From contig NZ_VFRP01000003.1 of NCBI RefSeq assembly GCF_006385685.1, forward strand, positions 186,001 through 250,000: a stretch of DNA of 64,000 nt. Reading direction: 5' to 3'. The DNA comes from Amaricoccus solimangrovi. Its GTDB lineage: Bacteria > Pseudomonadota > Alphaproteobacteria > Rhodobacterales > Rhodobacteraceae. This document shows positions 50,730 through 62,158 of this stretch, piece by piece. Under the pieces are notes generated by a model. It saw only the letters and a list, made by a program, of their open reading frames with translations. It was not told the origin of the DNA and did no database searches. Each line of letters begins with the position of its first letter. Positions within the stretch are counted from its first letter, which is position 1. The translations under genes were made by a program, and so were the position numbers.

Positions 50730-51953
50730 ATGCGGTATGTCTTCGACACCTTCGTGATCGACGCGGCGGCGCGGGAGTTGCGCGCGTCAGGGATGCCCGT
50801 GCGTGTCGAACCGAAGGTCCTCGATCTGCTCATCCAGCTGATCGAGCGCCGTGACCGGGTCGTGTCCAAGGACGATCTCGTCGAGGCGGTCTGGCAGGGC
50901 CGCTGCGTCTCCGACGCCGCGATATCGAGCGCGGTCAGCGCCGCGCGGCGCGTGCTCGGCGACGACGGCCATGGGCAGCGCTACGTCCGCACGATGCATG
51001 GCCGCGGGTTCCGCTTCGTGGGGCCGCTGGTGGAACTCGGCTCCGGCGCGGCGGAGGAAAGCCACCATGTCGACCAGCCGGGGGGAGACCGAGGCCGCGC
51101 GCCGGCCCGCGAGGCGCTCCGGCAGGAGATCCGCTATTGCCACAGCCTTGACGGCACACGCATCGCCTATGCGCGCGCGGGCGCCGGCCCGCCGCTCGTC
51201 AAGGCGGCGAACTGGCTCCATCATCTCGAATTCGACTGGGAAAGCCCGGTCTGGCGCCACATCTTCGAGGAACTTGCGAGCAGGCACCAGCTCCTGCGCT
51301 ACGACGGCAGGGGAATGGGGCTCTCCGCCTGGGACGTGAGCGATTTCGGACTGGAGCGCCAGATCGAGGATCTCGAGACCGTCGTCGACGCGGCCGGGCT
51401 GGACCGGTTCGCGCTGCTCGGCCTCTCGCAGGGCTGCGCGAAGGCCCTGGTCTACGCGGCGCGGCACCCGGAACGCGTGACCCGGCTCGTGCTGCTCGGA
51501 GGCTATGCGCGGGGGTGGAACCGGAGGGGCGATCCGGCGGGCGCGGTCCTGCGCCGGGCCGCGATCGAGATGATCCGCGTCGGCTGGGGGCGGGACAATC
51601 CGGCCGTGCGGCAGATGTTCACATCGCTCTACATGCCCGACGCGCCCGCGGACAGCCAGCGCTGGTTCTCGGACCTTCAGCGCAAGACGGCGAGCCCGCA
51701 AAACGCGGCGGCGGTACTCGAGGCGCATGGGGGCGTCGACATCCGCGACGTCCTGCCGCTCGTGAAGGCGCCGACGCTCGTCATCCATTCGCGGCACGAC
51801 GGCGGCGTGCCGTTCGAGCAGGGGCAGGAACTGGCCGCGGGCATCCCCGGCGCGCGGTTCGCGGTGCTCGACACCACCAACCATATCCTGCCGGCGACCG
51901 ATCCGGCGTGGCACCGCTGCGCGCGCCTGATCCGGGAGTTCCTGGCCGAATGA
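50730..51953 (+). CDS. Winged-helix DNA-binding domain fused to alpha/beta hydrolase
   Basis: The 407-residue protein has an OmpR-type winged helix (about 1-100: LDLLIQLIERRDRVVSKDDL, SDAAISSAVSAARRVLG and the wing MHGRGFRFVG) followed by an alpha/beta hydrolase (about 135-405). The nucleophile elbow is GLSQG with Ser233; the acid is Asp357 in SRHDGG and the base His385 in TTNHIL. The YDGRGMG strand lies upstream as in haloperoxidase-like or epoxide-type hydrolases. A catalytically complete domain on a DNA-binding module suggests a ligand-processing regulator. It is divergent from the OsmC-redox run, its likely target. Confidence 0.85.
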   Translation: MRYVFDTFVIDAAARELRASGMPVRVEPKVLDLLIQLIERRDRVVSKDDLVEAVWQGRCVSDAAISSAVSAARRVLGDDGHGQRYVRTMHGRGFRFVGPLVELGSGAAEESHHVDQPGGDRGRAPAREALRQEIRYCHSLDGTRIAYARAGAGPPLVKAANWLHHLEFDWESPVWRHIFEELASRHQLLRYDGRGMGLSAWDVSDFGLERQIEDLETVVDAAGLDRFALLGLSQGCAKALVYAARHPERVTRLVLLGGYARGWNRRGDPAGAVLRRAAIEMIRVGWGRDNPAVRQMFTSLYMPDAPADSQRWFSDLQRKTASPQNAAAVLEAHGGVDIRDVLPLVKAPTLVIHSRHDGGVPFEQGQELAAGIPGARFAVLDTTNHILPATDPAWHRCARLIREFLAE

Positions 51954-52067: not shown

Positions 52068-53690
52068 TCACGGAGCGGATCCCGAAAGCAACCCGCTCCG
52101 CGTGATGCGCAAGAGGGGTGTCCCGCGGAGCGAGGCGACGGGATAATCGGGGTCTTCGAAGGAAGAGAGGTCGAAATCGGGCTCCAGACGGCGCAGCGCC
52201 CTCAGCGCCTGATGCGCGGCCGCCTCCCGCCCGCCGTGAAAATGGAGCGCGGCGAGGAAGCGCAGCGGCGGTTTGTAGTTGGGCGCGAGTTCATGCGCCC
52301 GCGCGCCGAAATGGAGCGCCTCCGCGAAGCGGCCGGTCCGGACCGCGGTGACGCAGCAGAGCATGAACCAGGTTGCGCGGTTGGGATGGCACGCGGCGAG
52401 GTCGAGGGCGCGAAGCGCCTGATCATGCCCCTCCTCGGCGCGATCGGTCCAGGCCAGGCGGTAGGCGAGGCTCGCGCGTGCGAATGCGTTTGCGGGGCTG
52501 CTTGCGACGGCGCGCCGTGCCAGTTCGAGCGCCAGCACGGTCGATCCGTCGAACAGGGAAAAGACGTCCGAGGCGACCGACTGAACGATGGGATTGAACG
52601 GGTCCGAGACCAGGGCCTTCTGGATCGCCTCCAGCGCGTCCTCGCGGGCGCCCCGCTCGTCCGGCGCGGCGCGCTCGATGTACTGGGCGGTCCGCAGATA
52701 TGCCTGCCAGGCGAGGATCACGGGCGAGGGACAGATCGCATAGGCCGTCGCGAGCAGCCGGTGCCCCTCCGACATGTCGGCCCGGGTAAAGCTCATGAAC
52801 TTCTCGATGGCGCGATATGACAGGCCGGACGAGGTTTCGAGTTCGTCCGGCCGCGACCGGGCCAGTTCATGGACGATCACATCCGAGATCGCCGCCGCGA
52901 AGTCGTCCAGGGAGGCGGCCCCGCCATCGACACGCAGATCGAGAGCGTGGCGCCCGTTCCAGACCAGCCGCGCGCCGCGCGCCTCGTAGACCTGTGCGCG
53001 GAATACCGCGGTGGTCCCGATCAGCACCACCCGCAGCCGAAGCCGGAGCGCCCGGACGATCGGCAGCCCGGTATGCGGTCGCTCCGCCAGAACGAGCGCG
53101 TTCCCGGTCTCCGCGACCAGCGCGCCGATGTCGGTGGTGAGCATCTCGCCGAGGCGCTTCGGGTCGCCAGCCTCGGCGTCGGGAGGCTCGAGAAGCAGGA
53201 TCGGCCGGATCTCGGTGACCTCGGCGCCCGCGTCCTCGCGACCCGCGAGCGTCGCTTCCAGATGATCGGCGAAAGCGGAACGCCGCTCCCGGAGCCAGTC
53301 CTCTCCTTCCGGATCCTCGATCGAGAGGCCCTCGGCGAATTCGGGCCGCTCCTCGGCCGGCAGGGTGGCCGGGGGCTCCAGCACGACGCGCACCCGGGCC
53401 GGATCCAGACCCAGCCAGTCGGCATGCGCGACAAGGCAATCCTCGTGCGCGCCGAAGGCCCGGCGCAGACGGAGCAGCGTCTGGCGCAGGTTTCCCGCCC
53501 CCTGCTTCGCCGGCTTGTCGCTCCAGAGCTTGTCCTGCAGCCAGATCCGCGGCCGTCGCAGGTCGGGAGAGGTGCCCATGAACGCGAGAAGTGCGAGCGC
53601 CTTCGAAAAATTCGGAGTAAACTCCTGTCCGTGCTCGTCAAGGACGCGGACGGGACCAATGAGTCGAATTTCGATCCTTGCCTTTTCCAA
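52068..53690 (-). CDS. SARP-like regulator with TPR-type C-terminus
   Basis: The 540-residue protein has an N-terminal SARP/BTAD-like winged helix (FSKALALLAFM...LWSDKPAKQGAGNLRQTLLRLRRAF, about 28-80), a middle alpha/beta region (about 150-270, RPILLLEPPDAEAG) and helical TPR-like repeats to the end (AVASSPANAFARASLAYRLAW and following). The start is TTG at 53690, decided by a GCGGAGGTG site seven bases upstream. It is divergent from the PAP2-like/S8 peptidase operon with only 86 bases between, so it probably controls that operon. The signal is unknown. Confidence 0.82.
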   Translation of the reverse strand: MEKARIEIRLIGPVRVLDEHGQEFTPNFSKALALLAFMGTSPDLRRPRIWLQDKLWSDKPAKQGAGNLRQTLLRLRRAFGAHEDCLVAHADWLGLDPARVRVVLEPPATLPAEERPEFAEGLSIEDPEGEDWLRERRSAFADHLEATLAGREDAGAEVTEIRPILLLEPPDAEAGDPKRLGEMLTTDIGALVAETGNALVLAERPHTGLPIVRALRLRLRVVLIGTTAVFRAQVYEARGARLVWNGRHALDLRVDGGAASLDDFAAAISDVIVHELARSRPDELETSSGLSYRAIEKFMSFTRADMSEGHRLLATAYAICPSPVILAWQAYLRTAQYIERAAPDERGAREDALEAIQKALVSDPFNPIVQSVASDVFSLFDGSTVLALELARRAVASSPANAFARASLAYRLAWTDRAEEGHDQALRALDLAACHPNRATWFMLCCVTAVRTGRFAEALHFGARAHELAPNYKPPLRFLAALHFHGGREAAAHQALRALRRLEPDFDLSSFEDPDYPVASLRGTPLLRITRSGLLSGSAP

Positions 53691-53776
53691 TGCGACACCT
53701 CCGCGGTGCTGCCCGGTTCTCGCTCAGATTTCCGATTGATACTCCACTGACAACTGTGAACTCCGAGGGTATTGAT

Positions 53777-54841
53777 ATGGCAATTTCAAACAGATCAAAT
53801 CGATCCAACAGATCCAACAGGTCAGGCAAGACGCCGGATGATACGGCGGCGGCCGTCGGCGAGGCGGCCTTGTCGGCGGCGATCGCCACGACATACGATG
53901 GGGTGGTCGCGTCGCAGTCGCTCGACCAAGAAGAAATAAACCACAGCCGGCCCCGACTGCAAACCGCAATCGACGATGAGGATCTCGCGAGCCTCCTGGC
54001 CCTCGACCCCGAGTGGAGACAGGTGGTGCTTCTGGGCCTGGTTCTCGAAGGGCTGTCGGTCGGTCGGACGGAGGCGGGAGCGGCCGTCCGGTTCCGGAGC
54101 CGGGGCGAAGAAAAGGAGCTCATCGAGTTCGTTCCGCCCGATGCCGGTTATTTTCGCGGACAGCTCGCGGTCGTGCGCGGATACGCGGATCTGCGAGCGG
54201 AGCGTCTGATCGAGATCAACGTCCAGCTGACGGAGATCATCCCCTTCTTCGGAGCGGTCGACCGGCTGAGCCCGGCGCGCTGCCCCTGCACGCTGGAACT
54301 CCTCTACCTCGCGGAGGCGCTCAGCACCATCGTGGCCCAGCGCGTCAAGCATCTGCTCGGATGTCCGCGGCCGATCGATCTTTCGTCGCAGATCCAGCCG
54401 GTGATCCCGACGCCGACCCATTCGACCCTTCCGAGCGGGCATGCGACGGAGGCCTTCATCACGGCGGCGATCCTTGGCAAGCTCATCGACCGCGAGGGTG
54501 AGCGCACCGCTGCCTGCCAGCGGTATCGCATCGCCGCGCGGATCGCCGTCAACCGGACCATCGCCGGCGTGCACTTTCCGGTCGACAGCGCCGCGGGCGC
54601 GGTGCTGGGTGTGGCGCTGGCCGAGTGGCTGGCCGCCGCCGCCGGGGATGGAAAGTGCTTGGCGCGCCGGTTCGCCCCACCCGAGGGCGATGGGGTGAAG
54701 TTCGACTTCCACTATGAAACGTTCCGGAAAGACGTCCCAGAGGAGCATTGGGGGAAGAGGGCCCCGGGTGGGCAAGCGCTGCCGGACGAGGTTCCGCTGC
54801 TCGGCGCGCTCTGGAGACGCGCGCGGGGGGAGTGGGAATGA
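53777..54841 (+). CDS. Soluble PAP2 / vanadium-haloperoxidase-like protein
   Basis: The 354-residue protein has the three acid phosphatase/vanadate-binding motifs: KHLLGCPRP (Lys191, Arg198), PSGHATEA (Ser220-His222) and NRTIAGVHFPVD (Arg260, His266, Asp270). There is no signal peptide and no PAP2-type six-helix membrane core, so it looks like the soluble haloperoxidase/phosphatase group. The N-terminus has four NRS repeats. The ATG at 53777 has GAGGG upstream. It overlaps the S8 peptidase start by four bases (ATGA). Whether it is a haloperoxidase or a phosphatase cannot be decided from the motifs. Confidence 0.85.
   Translation: MAISNRSNRSNRSNRSGKTPDDTAAAVGEAALSAAIATTYDGVVASQSLDQEEINHSRPRLQTAIDDEDLASLLALDPEWRQVVLLGLVLEGLSVGRTEAGAAVRFRSRGEEKELIEFVPPDAGYFRGQLAVVRGYADLRAERLIEINVQLTEIIPFFGAVDRLSPARCPCTLELLYLAEALSTIVAQRVKHLLGCPRPIDLSSQIQPVIPTPTHSTLPSGHATEAFITAAILGKLIDREGERTAACQRYRIAARIAVNRTIAGVHFPVDSAAGAVLGVALAEWLAAAAGDGKCLARRFAPPEGDGVKFDFHYETFRKDVPEEHWGKRAPGGQALPDEVPLLGALWRRARGEWE
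53789..53824 (+). repeat. Four tandem 9-base NRS-coding repeats
   Basis: Four consecutive copies of an AACAGATCC-like unit encode Asn-Arg-Ser four times at residues 5-16 of the PAP2-like protein. Copies differ at synonymous positions. Copy number changes would stay in frame. Confidence 0.85.
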
Positions 54842-56658
54842 TGGAATGGACGGCGCTGACCGGGTTGGAGCGAAAGCCCATTTCTCCCTACGCGCATTTC
54901 GCGCGTTGCCTCGCGGAGCCGACCTCGGGCCCGCGGCATCTCTACCCGCTGCGAAAAAACCTGGGGACGGCGGCCTGGTCGGAGATGATCTCCATGAAGG
55001 AGTTCGCCGCGCTGTTCGGCGAATTCGATGACGAGATCATCGATCTGCTGCCGGAGAATACGATCAATCCCGCGAGGCTGCCCGGCAGGGACCGGCGCGG
55101 CCCGCCGCCGCCGGGAACGGTGTTCGTCGGCATCATCGACGACGGCTTCGCCTTCGCGCACGAACGCTTCCGGCTGGAACAGCCGGGAGAGGCGCCGCTC
55201 ACGCGCTTCGACGACCTCTGGCTCCAGGGCGTGCCATGCGATGGCCGGCGCGACGTTCCCCTCGGGCGGCGACTGACCGGGCCCGACATCGACGAACTGC
55301 TCGCGCGCTACCGGACCGGCGCCGGGATCGACGAGGACGCGCTTTACCGCGATCCCGCCGTCGGGATGATCGATTTCGGGCGGGGCGGGGTGGAGGACGA
55401 GGTCCAGATGCTCGCGCTGGCCCGAAGCCACGGAACCGCCGTGGCCGATGCCGCGGCCGGCTACCGGCCGGGGCGCCCGCGTGGCCGGCGTGTCCGGATC
55501 CTCGGCGTCGCGCTGCCTCCCCGGGTCACCTCCGATACGCTCGGCGTCTTCACCGAACCCGTCGTCTCGCTGGCGATCGAACACATCTACGCGCATGTCG
55601 AGGCCCGGCGCGCCGAGGCGATCGAAAGGTGGGGAGAGAAGGTCGATTACCCGCTCGTGATCAACATCAGCCTCGCCCTGACCGCCGGGGCGAAGGACGG
55701 CGGCTCGGTTCTCGACCGGCTGATCGACGAGATCACGAACAGGCGGCAAGGTCGCGCCCCGGTCCGTTTCGTGCTTCCGGCGGGGAACCATCGGCAATGG
55801 ATGACCCACGCGGTGCTCGACGCTCCAGGAAAGGTGACATGGCGGCTCCCGCCCGACGACCTGACCCCGAGCTTCGTCGAAATCTGGGGCTGCCGCGAGA
55901 AGCCGGAACGGCCCGGCTTCTCGGTCTCTCTCACTCCGCCGGGAGGTGGTGAGGGCGCGCCCATCCCGGCGACGCCCTTTGGCTGTGTCTACCTGCTCAC
56001 CGACGGGGGCGAGTCGCTGGCATGGGCCTACCGCGACTGGATCGGAAACCAGGCGTGCGGTCGGGAGCGCGTCGTGCTCGTGGTACCGCCGACCGCGGGC
56101 GAGGGACGCCGCGCGTTTCCAGGGGAGTGGTGCATCAGGGTGGATGCCGAGGCAGGAATCTTCGACGCGCCGGTCAATCTTTACGTACAGCGGGACGACA
56201 CGCTGCCGGGAGGCCGCCGCAGGGGACGGCAGTCCTATTTCGTGGATCCGGATTACGTCGACTACGATGACGAGGGTCGGGTCGTGCTGCGCGACGATCC
56301 CGGGAGACCGGGCGTGATCCGCCGCTCCGGCACGATGAACAGCCTGGCGACGTCGCGGGCCGCGATCGTCGTCGGCGGCAGGTTCCGCCAGTCGCGGACG
56401 GAAGTCGCCTACGGAGGCCTGGCGGAGGCGGACATCACATCCGACGCGCCGCGCTGGAAACGGGTGAGCCGCCTCGCCTCGAGCGAACGGAGCCCCTGGC
56501 TCGAAGGCGTGCTCGCCGCCGGATCGCGGAGCGGGGCGCGGCAGCCGATCGCCGGAACGAGCATCGCCTGCGCCCGGGTGACGCGCAAGCTCGCCAAGGA
56601 TCTGCTTTTCCGGTATCGCGCGGACTGGCGGCGTTGGGCGGATGGATCAGTGCCGTGA
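54838..56658 (+). CDS. S8 (subtilisin-like) serine peptidase without signal peptide
   Basis: The 606-residue protein has a complete, spread-out subtilisin triad: Asp101 in VGIIDDGFAF, His198 in RSHGTAVADA and Ser575 in AGTSIACARVTRKLA; the oxyanion Asn is Asn317 in VLPAGNHRQ. A roughly 250-residue insertion separates the oxyanion Asn from Ser and looks beta-rich (about 330-460). No signal peptide or propeptide is evident, so it is likely cytosolic and might act in regulated cleavage. It is translationally coupled to the PAP2-like gene. Target unknown; the family is clear but the architecture unfamiliar. Confidence 0.88.
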   Translation: MMEWTALTGLERKPISPYAHFARCLAEPTSGPRHLYPLRKNLGTAAWSEMISMKEFAALFGEFDDEIIDLLPENTINPARLPGRDRRGPPPPGTVFVGIIDDGFAFAHERFRLEQPGEAPLTRFDDLWLQGVPCDGRRDVPLGRRLTGPDIDELLARYRTGAGIDEDALYRDPAVGMIDFGRGGVEDEVQMLALARSHGTAVADAAAGYRPGRPRGRRVRILGVALPPRVTSDTLGVFTEPVVSLAIEHIYAHVEARRAEAIERWGEKVDYPLVINISLALTAGAKDGGSVLDRLIDEITNRRQGRAPVRFVLPAGNHRQWMTHAVLDAPGKVTWRLPPDDLTPSFVEIWGCREKPERPGFSVSLTPPGGGEGAPIPATPFGCVYLLTDGGESLAWAYRDWIGNQACGRERVVLVVPPTAGEGRRAFPGEWCIRVDAEAGIFDAPVNLYVQRDDTLPGGRRRGRQSYFVDPDYVDYDDEGRVVLRDDPGRPGVIRRSGTMNSLATSRAAIVVGGRFRQSRTEVAYGGLAEADITSDAPRWKRVSRLASSERSPWLEGVLAAGSRSGARQPIAGTSIACARVTRKLAKDLLFRYRADWRRWADGSVP

Positions 56659-56984: not shown

Positions 56985-59019
56985 CTATCGCCGCGAGGCA
57001 TGGCGCCGGGCGACCCAGGCGGGCAGCACCGCGCGCGGCGCGCCGCCGTCGGCACCCTTCGCGACCAGCGCGATGTCGCGCGGGACGCGCTTGTCATCGG
57101 CGTTGAGCGATTTCGCCGGCCAGCAGCGCCGGGTCACCGCGACGAGGGCGTCGAACCCCGCCGCCCAGTCCCGCAGCCCGTCCGCGTCGAGCGGCGCGAG
57201 CCAACGTGCCACAGTCTCGGGGTCGCCTGCCTCGTCCTCGACGCGGTCGGCGTTCAGCAGGACGAACTCCAGAACGCGGTCGAGCGCGCCGTCGCCCGGA
57301 AACTCGATCCCGCCGAGCAGGGGACCCAGCCAGGCTCCTGGCGAAGGCGCGAGCGGCGCGATCGCGAGCGCCGTGAGGCAGCCTTGGAGATGGGCCTCGC
57401 CGATCCCGGCCCGCGCCAGCAGCGGACCAATTGCCTCGCCCGCCTCGCGCGGCCGGGCGCCGCTGTCCCGGGCTTCGAATGCCTCCAGGCTCTGGTCCAC
57501 GATGCCGGCCATGATCGGGATCCGCCTGAGCGATCGGCCCATCGAGCAGGGCCTGGGCCACCGCCACGAAGGACAGCCAGGGCGCCGGCTCGGGCGCGGA
57601 TCTGAGCACCGCCGCCGAAACCGTGAAGTGTCGCGCCCACCAGTCGCGGCGGGTCTCGAGATGCGTCCAGACAGCGGTCTCGCGGCCCTTGTCGGTTCGC
57701 GCCCGCGCGATCGCGGCGCGGAGCGCGGCGGTGTCCTCGAACCAGCTGTCGGCGTGCCCGAAGCAATCCATCCAGTCGATGCTCTCCCTGACGAGAGCGG
57801 CGCGGCGGGCGGCGGGCAGCGCTTCCAGCGCGTCGCGCCCGCCGATCGCGGCGAGGATCGCCTCGGTATCGCCGGCGGCGGGGGCCAGTGCCTCCGGGCC
57901 CCAGATCTCGGCGAGGTCGACCAGCCCGGGCGCCGGGAGGAGACCGAGCGCCAGGCCCTCGCCGAGACCTCGCGCCAGCGCCTCGGCCAGCGCGGCGGGC
58001 GGCAGGTCGAAGGTCTCGATCTCGTCGAGCACGCGGGCCAGCATGCGCCTTTGTTCGCTGGCGCTGGCGCAGGGAATGACGAAGGCGTCCTTAACCGCCT
58101 GGCCCTGCTTCAGCATCGCCATCGCGACGCCGCGTCGGCCGCCGCGCTGGATCGCGGCGACCAGGCTTTGCGCGCCGGCGCCGTCGGCCAGGCTGGCGGC
58201 GGCGCGGTGGATGGTCACGGCCGGGATCTCCGCCGCGATCTCGGGCCTCGACCCGCCATCGCGCATCCGCCGCCGGATCGCCGCGTCCAGCGCGGCGCGG
58301 GCGGGGTCGTCGGGCAGCCATTTGCGGAGCGCCGGCAGGAGCGCGGCGAGGTCCGGGGCGAGCGTCCCGGCCTCGGCCCGGCTCAGCAGCGCGGTGGTGG
58401 CGGCGAGGCGGATCTCGGGACGCGGGTCGAGCAGCCAGTAGAGCCCGAGCCGCGGCTCGAGCGCGCCGGGTCGGGCGATCGTCATCGAAACCAGCATGGC
58501 GGCGAGTTCGGGCGGAATCCCGGCGAAGAGCTCGCCAAGCGCGGCATGGACCTGAAGCGGCGCGTCGCCGATCTCCTTCAGGATCGGCTCGAGCAGCGCG
58601 CCGAGATCGGGCATCTCCTGCGCCGCCTCGGTACTCGCCATGGTCTCCGGGGTCAGGACCGCGAAGGGCGGCGGTAGCAGGCCGGCGCGGGCGTAGACCT
58701 GGGCCAGGCGCAGGCGCGCGGCCGGCGCGAACGGCCGGGCCGCGTCCCGCGCGACCAGCACGTCGGCGACGGCGGTGATGAGCGCCCCGCCCTCGGGCGC
58801 GTCGTTCTCCATCGCCATGCGCGCCTCGTCGAGAGCATGGGACAGCAGCGCCATCGCCGCGCGCGTCGCCGCTTCGTCGTCGGGGCAAGCGGCGGCGCCG
58901 GCGACATCCGCGACGGAGGTCGGATCGGCGAGCAGCGCGAGGCCGCCATCCCTTACCAGGCGGGCTTATGCGCCCTCATCGGCGATGGCGGGGATCAGGG
59001 TGGAGAGCGCGTAGGTCAT
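56985..59019 (-). pseudogene. Disrupted gene for a long UPF0149 (YecA)-type protein
   Basis: Reading from ATG 59019, 17 codons are followed by an in-frame TAA (58966-58968), after which the same frame continues as coherent Ala-rich helical sequence to about 57540. There the frame shifts by one base at a GGG run (plus-strand CCC 57538-57540); removing one G restores LLDGRSLRRIPIMAGIVDQ and the following C-terminal part. That part has a UPF0149-like core (GCLTALAIAPLAPSPGAWLG, about 60 residues in). Two independent lesions in one gene argue for decay rather than sequencing error. The intact product would be about 675 residues. The short downstream frame may still be translated from 57542 or 57512. 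Confidence 0.7.
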
Positions 59020-59960: not shown

Positions 59961-60473
59961 ATGCGCGCCACCTCCGCGCGACGCGTCGCCGTGGCGCCCG
60001 ACACGCAGCCGTCGGCGATGGTCGCGGACCTCCGCCAGCGGATCGCGGCGCTCGAAACGCTGCCGACGCCGGAGCTTCGGACGGCCTGGCTCGCCGCCTG
60101 GGGCGTCGCGGCGCCGAAGGCCGCGCGCCGGCGGCTGCTGATGCTGGGCATCGCCTGGCGCTGGCAGGCCGAGGCGCTCGGAGGCTTTCGCCCGGAGACG
60201 GCGCGCCGGCTGGCGGCGCTCGAGAAGGCCGCGCGCCGCGACGCCGGCATCGCCGCCGGCGACATCGCGGCGGCGGCGCGGCCACGTCCCGGCGCGCGGC
60301 TGATCCGCGACTGGGGTGGCACCCGGCACGAGGTGCGTGCGACGCACGACGGCTATCTCTGGCGGGGCCGGAGCTTCGGCTCGCTCTCGGCGGTCGCGAA
60401 GGCCATCACCGGGAGCAACCGCAACGGCCCGGCCTTCTTCGGGTTGCGCGGCGTGAAGGGCGAGGAAGGCTGA
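59961..60473 (+). CDS. DUF2924-domain protein
   Basis: The 170-residue protein matches DUF2924: an N-terminal helical part (DLRQRIAALETLPTPELRTAW), then the conserved C-terminal stretch PGARLIRDWGGTRHEVRATHDGYLWRGRSFGSLSAVAKAITGSNRNGPAFFGL. The last part resembles DNA-binding or recombination-associated modules and is always met next to recombinases. Its stop shares one base with the recombinase ATG (TGATG), so the two are co-translated. The biochemical role is unknown. Confidence 0.88.
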   Translation: MRATSARRVAVAPDTQPSAMVADLRQRIAALETLPTPELRTAWLAAWGVAAPKAARRRLLMLGIAWRWQAEALGGFRPETARRLAALEKAARRDAGIAAGDIAAAARPRPGARLIRDWGGTRHEVRATHDGYLWRGRSFGSLSAVAKAITGSNRNGPAFFGLRGVKGEEG

Positions 60474-62158
60474 TGGCCGGCGCGGAAAAACCGCGCAGGC
60501 TGCGCTGCGCGATCTACACCCGGAAATCGACCGAGGAAGGGCTCGAGCAGGAGTTCAACTCGCTCGACGCGCAACGCGAAGCCTGCGCCGCCTATATCCG
60601 AAGCCAGAAGCACGAGGGCTGGAGCGCGCTCGCGGAACGCTACGACGACGGCGGCTTCTCCGGCGGCTCGATGGAGCGGCCGGCTCTGAAGGCGCTGCTC
60701 GCCGATGTCGCGGCGGGCCGGATCGACGTGGTCGTGGTCTACAAGGTGGACCGGCTCACGCGGGCGCTGGCCGACTTCGCCCGGATCGTCGCGATCTTCG
60801 ACGCGGGATCGGTCTCCTTCGTCTCGGTGACCCAGGCGTTCAACACCACGACCTCGATGGGGCGGCTGACGCTGAACGTGCTTTTGTCCTTCGCGCAGTT
60901 CGAGCGCGAGGTCACCGCCGAGCGCATCCGCGACAAGATCGCCGCCTCGAAGCGGAAGGGCATGTGGATGGGCGGCCAGGTACCGTTCGGCTACCGGGTC
61001 GAGGCCCGGAAGCTGGTGCCCCATCGTGAAGAGGCGGATCAGGTCCGCGCCATCTTCGAGCAGTATCTCGAACTCGGCACGGTGCCGAGGCTCCAGGTCG
61101 CGCTGGAGCGATCGGGGGAGCGGACACCGATCCGCGTGAGCGCCTCTGGCAAGCGCTCCGGGGGCGCGATCTTCTCGCGCGGCGCGCTCGACGCGCTGCT
61201 GACCAATCCGCTGCTGATCGGGCACATCCGCCATCGCGACGAGGTGCATCCCGGGCAGCATCCGGCGATTATCGGGCCTGATCTCTGGCATCAGGTGCAG
61301 GCGCGGCTGGCGGCGAACCGGGTGGAACGGCGCGAGACGCCGATCGGGCAAGCGCCCAGCGCGCTCGCGGGACGGCTGTTCGATCCGGACGGCCAGCCGA
61401 TGCGGCCAAGCCATGCTACTACCTGCAAGCGGCGCTACCGCTACTACGTCGGCCGCGCGCTGATCGAGACGGCGGTGGCAGCCGGGGCGAAGGGCTGGCG
61501 CATCCCGGCCGAGGAGGTCGAGGCAGCGGTCGCGCGGGCCATTGTCGCCAGGATCAGCGATCCGGAGTTCACCGGCGAGCTGCTCGCGACGAACTCCGAT
61601 GATCCCGCCGTGACCGCCCAGCGCCTCCTGGCCCTGGAAGAGACGCGGCGGCGGCTTGGGGCAACCGGCTCGCCGGAGGCCAGCGCGACGCTGCGCCGGA
61701 TCGTCCGCCGGGTCGATGTCGGCGCCGACCGGCTGCGCGCTTCGATCGAGCTTGGGGAAGCGGAGCAAGGCACCTCGCTCGCCGGTCTGGAGCCGATCAC
61801 CATCGAGCATCCGCTCAGGCTCATCCGGCGCGGCGGCGAACTGCGGCTGCTGCTGAGCGGGGCATCGGCCGGCGCCGCCCGGCCCGACGCGGCGCTGATC
61901 CGGATGCTGATCCGGTCGCGGCTCTGGCTGACCGAGTGGCGCGACGCCGAGCCACCGGTCGCGCTCGCGGCGATCGCCGCGCGCGAGGGCGTCGACGCGG
62001 GCGATGTCTCGCGGCTGACGCAACTGGCGTTTCTCGCCCCCGCCGCGGTCGAGCGCATCCTCGACGGATCGCAGCCGGTGGCTCTCACGGCGACCAGGCT
62101 AAAGCGGATCGGCGATCTGCCGCTGCTCTGGGACGAGCAGGTCGCCGCGCTGAACTGA
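60473..62158 (+). CDS. Large serine recombinase
   Basis: The 561-residue site-specific recombinase has a resolvase-type catalytic domain (about 10-165): RCAIYTRKSTEEG with the nucleophile Ser19, the active-site Arg in SGGSMERPALKALL, and VVVVYKVDRLTRALADFARI. A recombinase domain follows (about 180-300, VPFGYRVE and LLTNPLLIGHIRHRDEVHPGQHPAIIGP). The zinc ribbon is degenerate, with only one Cys in that region. It lies at the right end of the accessory tract and faces the tRNA-Lys genes. The attachment site is not identified. Confidence 0.93.
   Translation: MAGAEKPRRLRCAIYTRKSTEEGLEQEFNSLDAQREACAAYIRSQKHEGWSALAERYDDGGFSGGSMERPALKALLADVAAGRIDVVVVYKVDRLTRALADFARIVAIFDAGSVSFVSVTQAFNTTTSMGRLTLNVLLSFAQFEREVTAERIRDKIAASKRKGMWMGGQVPFGYRVEARKLVPHREEADQVRAIFEQYLELGTVPRLQVALERSGERTPIRVSASGKRSGGAIFSRGALDALLTNPLLIGHIRHRDEVHPGQHPAIIGPDLWHQVQARLAANRVERRETPIGQAPSALAGRLFDPDGQPMRPSHATTCKRRYRYYVGRALIETAVAAGAKGWRIPAEEVEAAVARAIVARISDPEFTGELLATNSDDPAVTAQRLLALEETRRRLGATGSPEASATLRRIVRRVDVGADRLRASIELGEAEQGTSLAGLEPITIEHPLRLIRRGGELRLLLSGASAGAARPDAALIRMLIRSRLWLTEWRDAEPPVALAAIAAREGVDAGDVSRLTQLAFLAPAAVERILDGSQPVALTATRLKRIGDLPLLWDEQVAALN

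What the first reader, a model, noticed from the sequence alone, without database searches (positions are those of the whole stretch)
52068..56658. SARP-like regulator divergent from a coupled PAP2/haloperoxidase-like and cytosolic S8 peptidase operon
Three genes form a self-contained locus: a SARP-TPR regulator, a soluble protein with all three PAP2/vanadate motifs, and a subtilisin-like peptidase with intact triad but no signal peptide, joined by an ATGA overlap. An intracellular protease co-translated with a phosphatase or haloperoxidase is not a pathway I recognise. It could be a proteolysis-based stress or conflict system, or a maturation pair for an unknown product. Flanking AT-rich DNA suggests acquisition.
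Basis: partly seen in the sequence, partly recalled or inferred. Interest (0 to 1): 0.72.

Follow-up and report, generated by a model that had tools for sequence, protein, structure and literature searches.

The report
Repeat-tailed phosphatase, protease, regulator trio
Three neighbouring bacterial genes that travel together make a regulator, a protease and a phosphatase-like enzyme whose front end is one short "word" repeated many times, a different word in most lineages, which looks like a private docking code of a signalling or defence system that I could not find described.

Summary
The trio (SARP-like/TPR regulator, PAP2 protein, S8 peptidase, ATGA overlap) is a conserved module of Alphaproteobacteria and Burkholderiales: the same 35 plasmids encode both S8 and PAP2, and all 80 genomic loci picked on PAP2 alone also carry S8 and regulator. 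The PAP2 protein begins with a tandem peptide array (here NRS x4), present in nearly every homologue examined but with a different unit in most (68 units in 101 systems). Copies are the same in protein but scrambled in codons: 1506 synonymous against 34 non-synonymous differences between adjacent copies, with fewer shared codons than shuffles give. Outgroup PAP2 proteins lack it. In deeper branches other peptidases replace this S8. The unit covaries most with the regulator's TPR half, and array charge is balanced by the adjoining PAP2 segment. Best model: a protease-gated PAP2 effector whose tail is a lineage-private docking tag, probably read by the TPR half. Architecture is shown; mechanism is inferred. 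A haloperoxidase is unlikely: the nearest folds are class A acid phosphatases.

The parts
52068..53690 (-). Regulator: SARP-like N-terminus, TolB-like middle (assigned by eye and from a weak FlgO match in a homologue), TPR C-terminal half
53691..53776 (.). Divergent intergenic stretch between regulator and PAP2 gene, presumed promoter region
   Evidence: position between the two ORFs; no promoter test made
53777..54841 (+). PAP2 superfamily protein, 354 aa, class A acid-phosphatase-like fold
53786..53824 (+). N-terminal tandem tripeptide array SNR-SNR-SNR-SNR-S of the PAP2 protein; adjacent copies: 3 identical, 7 synonymous, 0 non-synonymous codon pairs
54838..56658 (+). S8 (subtilisin-like) peptidase, 606 aa, Csp-like fold, translationally coupled by ATGA overlap

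Best explanation
A three-part intracellular module. The PAP2 enzyme is a phosphatase-type effector; the co-encoded protease gates it, or its complex, by limited proteolysis; the regulator (TPR half as input; SARP-like, wHTH or cyclase domain as output) listens to the PAP2 protein. The perfect repeat at the PAP2 N-terminus is a multivalent, lineage-private docking tag, most likely bound by the TPR half and released or cut by the protease, so that the regulator reports the state of the protease-PAP2 pair. Shown here: the trio and its conserved linkage, the array under strict protein-level constraint with a nearly free choice of unit, codon scrambling, exchange of protease type, exchange of regulator N-terminal domain. 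Inferred: enzymatic activity, TPR-tail binding, cleavage of the tail or of PAP2, and any role in defence or stress.
For: Co-occurrence: same 35 of 72,556 plasmids; 101 of 101 loci with all three genes, PAP2-S8 gap median 7 bases and at most 527; same 5 of 289 class genomes for strong PAP2 and strong S8 hits. Peptidase function conserved while its family changes: S8 of this family in 18, A4/G1 in 5, another S8 in 2 of 25 loci. Regulator output domain exchanged but TPR kept in 10 of 10 scanned. Array constraint. Unit similarity covaries with the TPR half (partial r 0.136, 0 of 300 label shuffles; 0.391 in close pairs, 0 of 200) more than with S8 or the PAP2 catalytic part. Precedent for protease-activated hydrolase pairs that use several protease families: PMC12799240 (passages).
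Against: No binding, cleavage or activity was tested. Label shuffles ignore phylogeny. L054 (NAQ) and L071 (HGE) differ in the whole unit at 85% TPR identity. TPR charge does not mirror unit charge. Without Paracoccus the S8 partial correlation (0.093, 1 of 200) nearly equals that of TPR (0.101). Array charge is balanced inside PAP2 itself, which suits self-association or intramolecular packing as well. L159 shows a weaker PAP2 relative next to a weaker regulator relative without any array.
Confidence: 0.35

Rival explanations
1. The array is a self-association element: identical copies pair with identical copies of other PAP2 molecules (filament or condensate) or pack on the PAP2 N-domain; the protease controls disassembly and the regulator senses the result indirectly.
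For: Identity among copies matters more than which unit it is. Array net charge is compensated in the next 25 residues (Spearman -0.67 over 101 systems; sister pairs 9 of 10). PAP2 N-domain covaries with the unit (partial 0.061, 3 of 300). Units rich in G, S, A, N, Q, H, Y, F.
Against: Self-pairing alone does not explain covariation with TPR nor the constant regulator. The charge correlation is not phylogeny-corrected and the sister-pair test is small (p 0.02). The model shows the tail as disordered.
Confidence: 0.25
2. The array is a multi-copy precursor: the protease excises many copies of a short peptide that acts as a signal or product, and the TPR regulator is its receptor (in the manner of repeated pheromone precursors and of RRNPP receptors; both recalled).
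For: Identical copies within, different words between lineages is what a multi-copy signal gene would show; protease and TPR regulator are linked; TPR covariation.
Against: No export signal by inspection; units as short as two residues (GS, NK); no conserved cleavage site flanking the units seen; the array is fused to a conserved enzyme with invariant catalytic residues; the protease family changes without a rule for the unit.
Confidence: 0.12
3. A metabolic or biosynthetic operon: a vanadium haloperoxidase or phosphatase matured by a dedicated protease, with its own SARP activator.
For: PAP2 motifs are shared with haloperoxidases; SARPs often govern biosynthesis (recalled).
Against: Nearest folds are class A acid phosphatases (E 2e-6) and haloperoxidases lie far behind (E 0.02 or worse); no other gene shared by more than 17 of about 100 loci; cyclase-type regulators.
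Confidence: 0.08
4. The array is a by-product of DNA slippage at the 5' end with little function.
For: Copy number varies (5, 6 or 7 in nine Phaeobacter records); some arrays are near-identical in DNA (L094, L098).
Against: 1506 synonymous against 34 non-synonymous adjacent differences; 44 against 0 between same-unit relatives; 98 of 102 PAP2 ORFs against 0 of 10 outgroup PAP2 hits, 9 distinct proteins; adjacent codon identity below shuffles.
Confidence: 0.03

Closest known systems
Nuclease-protease pairs of antiviral systems (PMC12799240; passages seen, abstract included)
   Same: A hydrolase encoded next to a protease; several protease families serve; TPR occurs in some of the loci.
   Different: There the hydrolase is an MBL-fold nuclease and activation was shown by experiment; here it is a PAP2 protein with a repeat tail, a dedicated regulator, and no experiment.
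Class A (non-specific) acid phosphatases, PAP2 superfamily
   Same: Catalytic motifs and fold.
   Different: No signal peptide by inspection, extra N-domain, N-terminal array.
Csp germination subtilases (CspA/B/C)
   Same: Best structural match of the S8 (E 4e-20).
   Different: About 16% identity, no spore context, different genetic partners.
SARP / BTAD regulators and cyclase- or wHTH-TPR regulators of Proteobacteria
   Same: DNA-binding or cyclase N-terminus followed by TPR.
   Different: Constant partner of a tailed PAP2 and a protease.
RRNPP peptide-sensing TPR regulators (recalled)
   Same: Output domain plus TPR that could read a short peptide.
   Different: No exported pro-peptide found; the peptide-like part is an array fused to an enzyme; Proteobacteria.

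Membership tests
PAP2 superfamily | K-x6-RP, PSGH and R-x5-H-x3-D motifs with Pfam match above cut-off | tested here: met
   56.1 bits against 27.2; catalytic residues invariant in 54 rows
Class A acid phosphatase | acid phosphatase fold | tested here: met
   Foldseek 7f17 E 2e-6
Class A acid phosphatase | signal peptide for export | tested here: inconclusive
   none seen by inspection of the window protein; no predictor run
Vanadium-dependent haloperoxidase | haloperoxidase fold as nearest relative | tested here: not met
   4cit E 0.02, 1qi9 E 0.045, behind acid phosphatases
Vanadium-dependent haloperoxidase | vanadate-dependent halogenation | not testable with these tools
   needs an assay
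Peptidase family S8 | D/H/S triad in subtilisin fold | tested here: met
   D101, H198, S575 invariant in 48 rows; Csp fold match; window itself 2 bits below Pfam cut-off
Csp germination protease | spore-former context and SleC substrate (recalled) | tested here: not met
   hosts are Alphaproteobacteria and Burkholderiales, no such neighbours in the annotated loci read
SARP regulator | wHTH plus BTAD domain | tested here: inconclusive
   no BTAD match in the window regulator; BTAD E 8e-23 in the regulator of L221; RefSeq name SARP for a 35% identical homologue
RRNPP peptide receptor system | secreted pro-peptide gene beside an HTH-TPR receptor | tested here: not met
   the annotated loci read show no such gene; short ORFs were not searched systematically
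Hydrolase-protease proenzyme pair | co-encoded hydrolase and protease, protease family exchangeable | tested here: met
Hydrolase-protease proenzyme pair | cleavage by the protease activates the hydrolase | not testable with these tools
   needs biochemistry
Known anti-phage defence systems | match to a PADLOC profile | tested here: not met
   best E 0.04 for the regulator, none for the other two

The most novel reading that the evidence does not exclude
The tail is a molecular password. These bacteria carry a protease-gated phosphatase switch whose insulation from sister systems rests on an arbitrary short peptide word, repeated exactly and read by a matching TPR domain; the word is replaced as a whole in evolution, while codons are kept scrambled so that the repeat does not collapse.
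Probability: 0.3. Interest if true: 0.92.

Novelty: categorically new. Interest (0 to 1): 0.8.

Why it matters
A protein segment whose sequence is nearly free but whose copies must equal each other, with codons scrambled against repeat collapse, is a very unusual evolutionary signature. It comes with an exchangeable protease and an exchangeable output domain. If the TPR half reads the word, nature offers many matched peptide-receptor pairs (68 units among 101 systems), useful for insulated circuits, and a new case of proteolysis-gated signalling or immunity in marine and soil bacteria. Every step can be tested with laboratory strains and synthetic peptides.

Tried and rejected
Rejected: haloperoxidase as the likely activity; slippage by-product; S8 as the main reader of the unit (weakens this, since S8 reaches 1 and 7 of 200 shuffles in two subsets); electrostatic reading of the unit by TPR (Spearman -0.14, p 0.18); a hidden copy of the unit in regulator or S8 (22 against 23.3 +/- 5.1, and 46 against 38.4 +/- 7.5; the PAP2 core has 28 against 16.0 +/- 4.7, perhaps leftover partial units); a second tagged protein in the window's genome (three NRS codon sets in a row only at this gene) or in the loci (only low-complexity GS matches in L056); a conserved fourth gene (no other ORF cluster in more than 17 of about 100 loci).

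Led nowhere: no S8 relative in viral contigs; PADLOC; empty-site test (the right-hand neighbour was not found in the 10 congeners, so no clean comparison). Paper searches without a description of this system: (open-licence PMC only; in most of them only the listing was seen).

Limits: the models came from the first 21 loci, and the 80 genomic loci are the best 80 of 539 relatives, so the linkage figure holds for close relatives; more distant ones are. The A4 model was built from four of the five loci it finds; Pfam is the independent test. Sets overlap: L113 is a second record of L025, dropped but counted; L194 and L070 lie in contigs of equal length and carry the same array. In one search, L098 has runs of N that give 48 identical and 3 of the 34 non-synonymous cells, and L061 and L072 are not counted; one search leaves out L098. 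One search used 83 systems with 3-residue units; L063, L067, L092 and those with other unit lengths or short proteins were left out. The seven pairs share loci. The array of L223 is imperfect and its protease rests on an HEFGH motif read by eye; the cysteine peptidase of L221 is below Pfam's cut-off (E 0.005). The partner comparison has ten pairs.
Full report
WHAT IS THERE. PAP2 catalytic residues and the S8 triad are invariant among the homologues aligned. The PAP2 model is good (mean pLDDT 85) except residues 1-25 and 319-321; its nearest solved folds are class A acid phosphatases (7f17, E 2e-6), haloperoxidases being far behind. The S8 model (mean pLDDT 86) matches Csp subtilases of clostridia (CspA, E 4e-20). 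No PADLOC profile matches the PAP2 or S8; the best for the regulator has E 0.04.

LINKAGE. tblastn of the S8 and of the PAP2 against 72,556 plasmids lists the same 35 records (accession lists compared by eye). The two genes are side by side in 12 of 12 records opened for this. Among the window's genome and 60 relatives, 8 of 61 genomes have the S8, none of the 10 congeners; 9 of 9 of the other S8 places have the PAP2 nearby. A scan of one genome per species for PAP2 relatives found 539 and kept the best 80. With models made from 21 loci, 101 of 101 loci (those 21 and the 80) hold PAP2, S8 and regulator (L092 is broken, L067 cut by the contig end, L113 repeats L025). The PAP2-S8 gap has a median of 7 and a maximum of 527 bases; the regulator adjoins PAP2 within 338 bases except in three loci where it lies 2.2-2.3 kb away, on the far side of S8. 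Order and strand vary: S8 is mostly co-directional and sometimes convergent. In 289 genomes of the class, strong PAP2 hits (E<1e-100, six) and strong S8 hits (E<1e-130, six) lie in the same five genomes.

THE ARRAY. Aligning 21 PAP2 proteins showed a tandem peptide array after the start in each, with a different unit in most: NRS in the window, GVS, NSF, GGI, GSF, NGK, GTQ, GWE, GNQ and others elsewhere. Over 103 PAP2 proteins (window plus 102) the best period is 3 in 89, 4 in 12, 2 in 1, 6 in 1; two that looked empty carry an 8-residue unit (L072) and HGQ behind an over-long ORF (L061). Background: arrays scoring 9 or more in 98 of 102 PAP2 ORFs (6 or more in 101), 0 of 103 S8 ORFs, 2 of 104 regulator ORFs, 20 of 3354 other ORFs, and 0 of 10 outgroup PAP2 hits (9 distinct proteins). 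The two regulator cases are antisense readings of the array itself, and of the 20 others 11 overlap the PAP2 gene and 4 are runs of N. Over 101 systems there are 68 units (rotations merged); each holds G, A, N or S, none holds P or C, and arrays span 9-68 residues.

CONSTRAINT WITHOUT A FIXED SEQUENCE. Between adjacent copies 1506 codon pairs differ synonymously, 727 are identical and 34 differ non-synonymously (limits under Tried and rejected). Between same-unit relatives 44 of 127 array codons differ, all synonymously. Adjacent copies share fewer identical codons than shuffles: 700 against 875 +/- 19, minimum of 500 shuffles 826; I read this as selection against repeat collapse. Copy number moves: nine Phaeobacter records have 5 (one), 6 (six) or 7 (two) NSF copies. 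Near relatives differ in the whole array: HGE against HGQ (core 93% identical), NAQ against HGE (83%), SSD against SGD (88%; one copy SAD).

EXCHANGEABLE PARTS. TPR is found in 10 of 10 regulators scanned; of these 2 have a wHTH, 4 a cyclase domain and 4 no N-terminal Pfam match, one more has BTAD. More distant tailed PAP2 proteins sit by the regulator with other peptidases: A4/G1 in L154, L156, L157, L158, L179, another S8 in L155, L180, L220. Of 25 loci, 25 have array and regulator, 18 this S8, 5 A4, 2 another S8. Of 4 loci, L222 has this S8, L220 another S8, L221 a sub-threshold papain-like peptidase, L223 only an HEFGH motif in a 983-residue protein without Pfam match. Against a fixed rule, L159 has a weaker, signal-peptide-bearing PAP2 relative beside a weaker regulator relative, with no array.

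WHO READS THE WORD. For 83 systems, unit similarity was compared with pairwise identity of five parts, each given the other four: TPR half 0.136 (0 of 300 shuffles), PAP2 N-domain 0.061 (3), S8 0.031 (41), TolB-like -0.029 (263), PAP2 catalytic -0.037 (265). TPR is highest in all six sets (0.391 for close pairs), but without Paracoccus S8 comes near (0.093 against 0.101). Among pairs with PAP2 catalytic identity of 75% or more, 17 same-unit pairs have 78-99% TPR identity, and 5 pairs sharing at most one residue have 52-85%. In the Polaromonas trio LTG/SGI/AGY, 30-residue blocks of the regulator are 87-100% identical for residues 1-150, 73-97% for 151-300 and 26-83% beyond, while the S8 proteins are 83-91% identical. 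Against this stand L054/L071, no charge relation with TPR, and the charge balance between array and the next 25 PAP2 residues (Spearman -0.67, not phylogeny-corrected; sister pairs 9 of 10; controls catalytic 3/9, S8 5/9, TPR 6/8). Docking to TPR and self-association both stay open; I rank docking first by a small margin.

FUNCTION. Patchy occurrence, plasmid carriage, several genomes with two systems of different words (G011, G014, G129, G288, L056; but only 52 of 3403 pairs share a unit anyway) and exchange of peptidases suit a conflict or signalling module. The nearest published logic is the nuclease-protease pair, in which a protease unmasks a hydrolase and several protease families are used (PMC12799240, passages). 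A survey of conflict systems (PMC7159879, term search and passages) mentions subtilisin-family peptidases and has no hit for PAP2. No link to phage was found or tested here.

NOVELTY. The parts are known families; the trio, the nearly universal but arbitrary repeat and the codon scrambling were not described in anything my searches returned. I rate it categorically new because the defining tail fits no kind I know, while the protease-hydrolase logic has a precedent.

Noticed in passing
window 60473-62158 (+): Large serine recombinase (Resolvase plus Recombinase domains) about 3.8 kb beyond the S8 gene; could belong to an island that brought the trio.
   Followed up: no
window 57094-58854 (-): 586-residue ORF without Pfam match at E 0.05, not found in 10 of 10 congeners at E 1e-30.
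   Followed up: partly
window 50730-51953 (+): OmpR-type wHTH fused to an alpha/beta hydrolase; relatives in 4 of 10 congeners at E 1e-60.
   Followed up: partly
   Followed up: partly
L098:7560-7724: Polaromonas MAG array of seven WVA copies identical in DNA, followed by a run of N: perhaps a newly born array.
   Followed up: no
L161:6478-9748: A distant S8 relative directly followed by a radical-SAM-like ORF (CxxxCxxC motif seen by eye), without PAP2 in view; possibly an unrelated peptide-modification locus.
   Followed up: no
L056:1616-12512: Two complete trios about 2.7 kb apart (PAP2 to PAP2 4.9 kb), with different words (SAY x10 and GS x20) and S8 genes facing each other.
   Followed up: partly
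L223:5779-10192: Tailed PAP2 with an irregular GL/GN/GS-rich tail, convergent with a 983-residue ORF that has an HEFGH motif and no Pfam match.
   Followed up: partly
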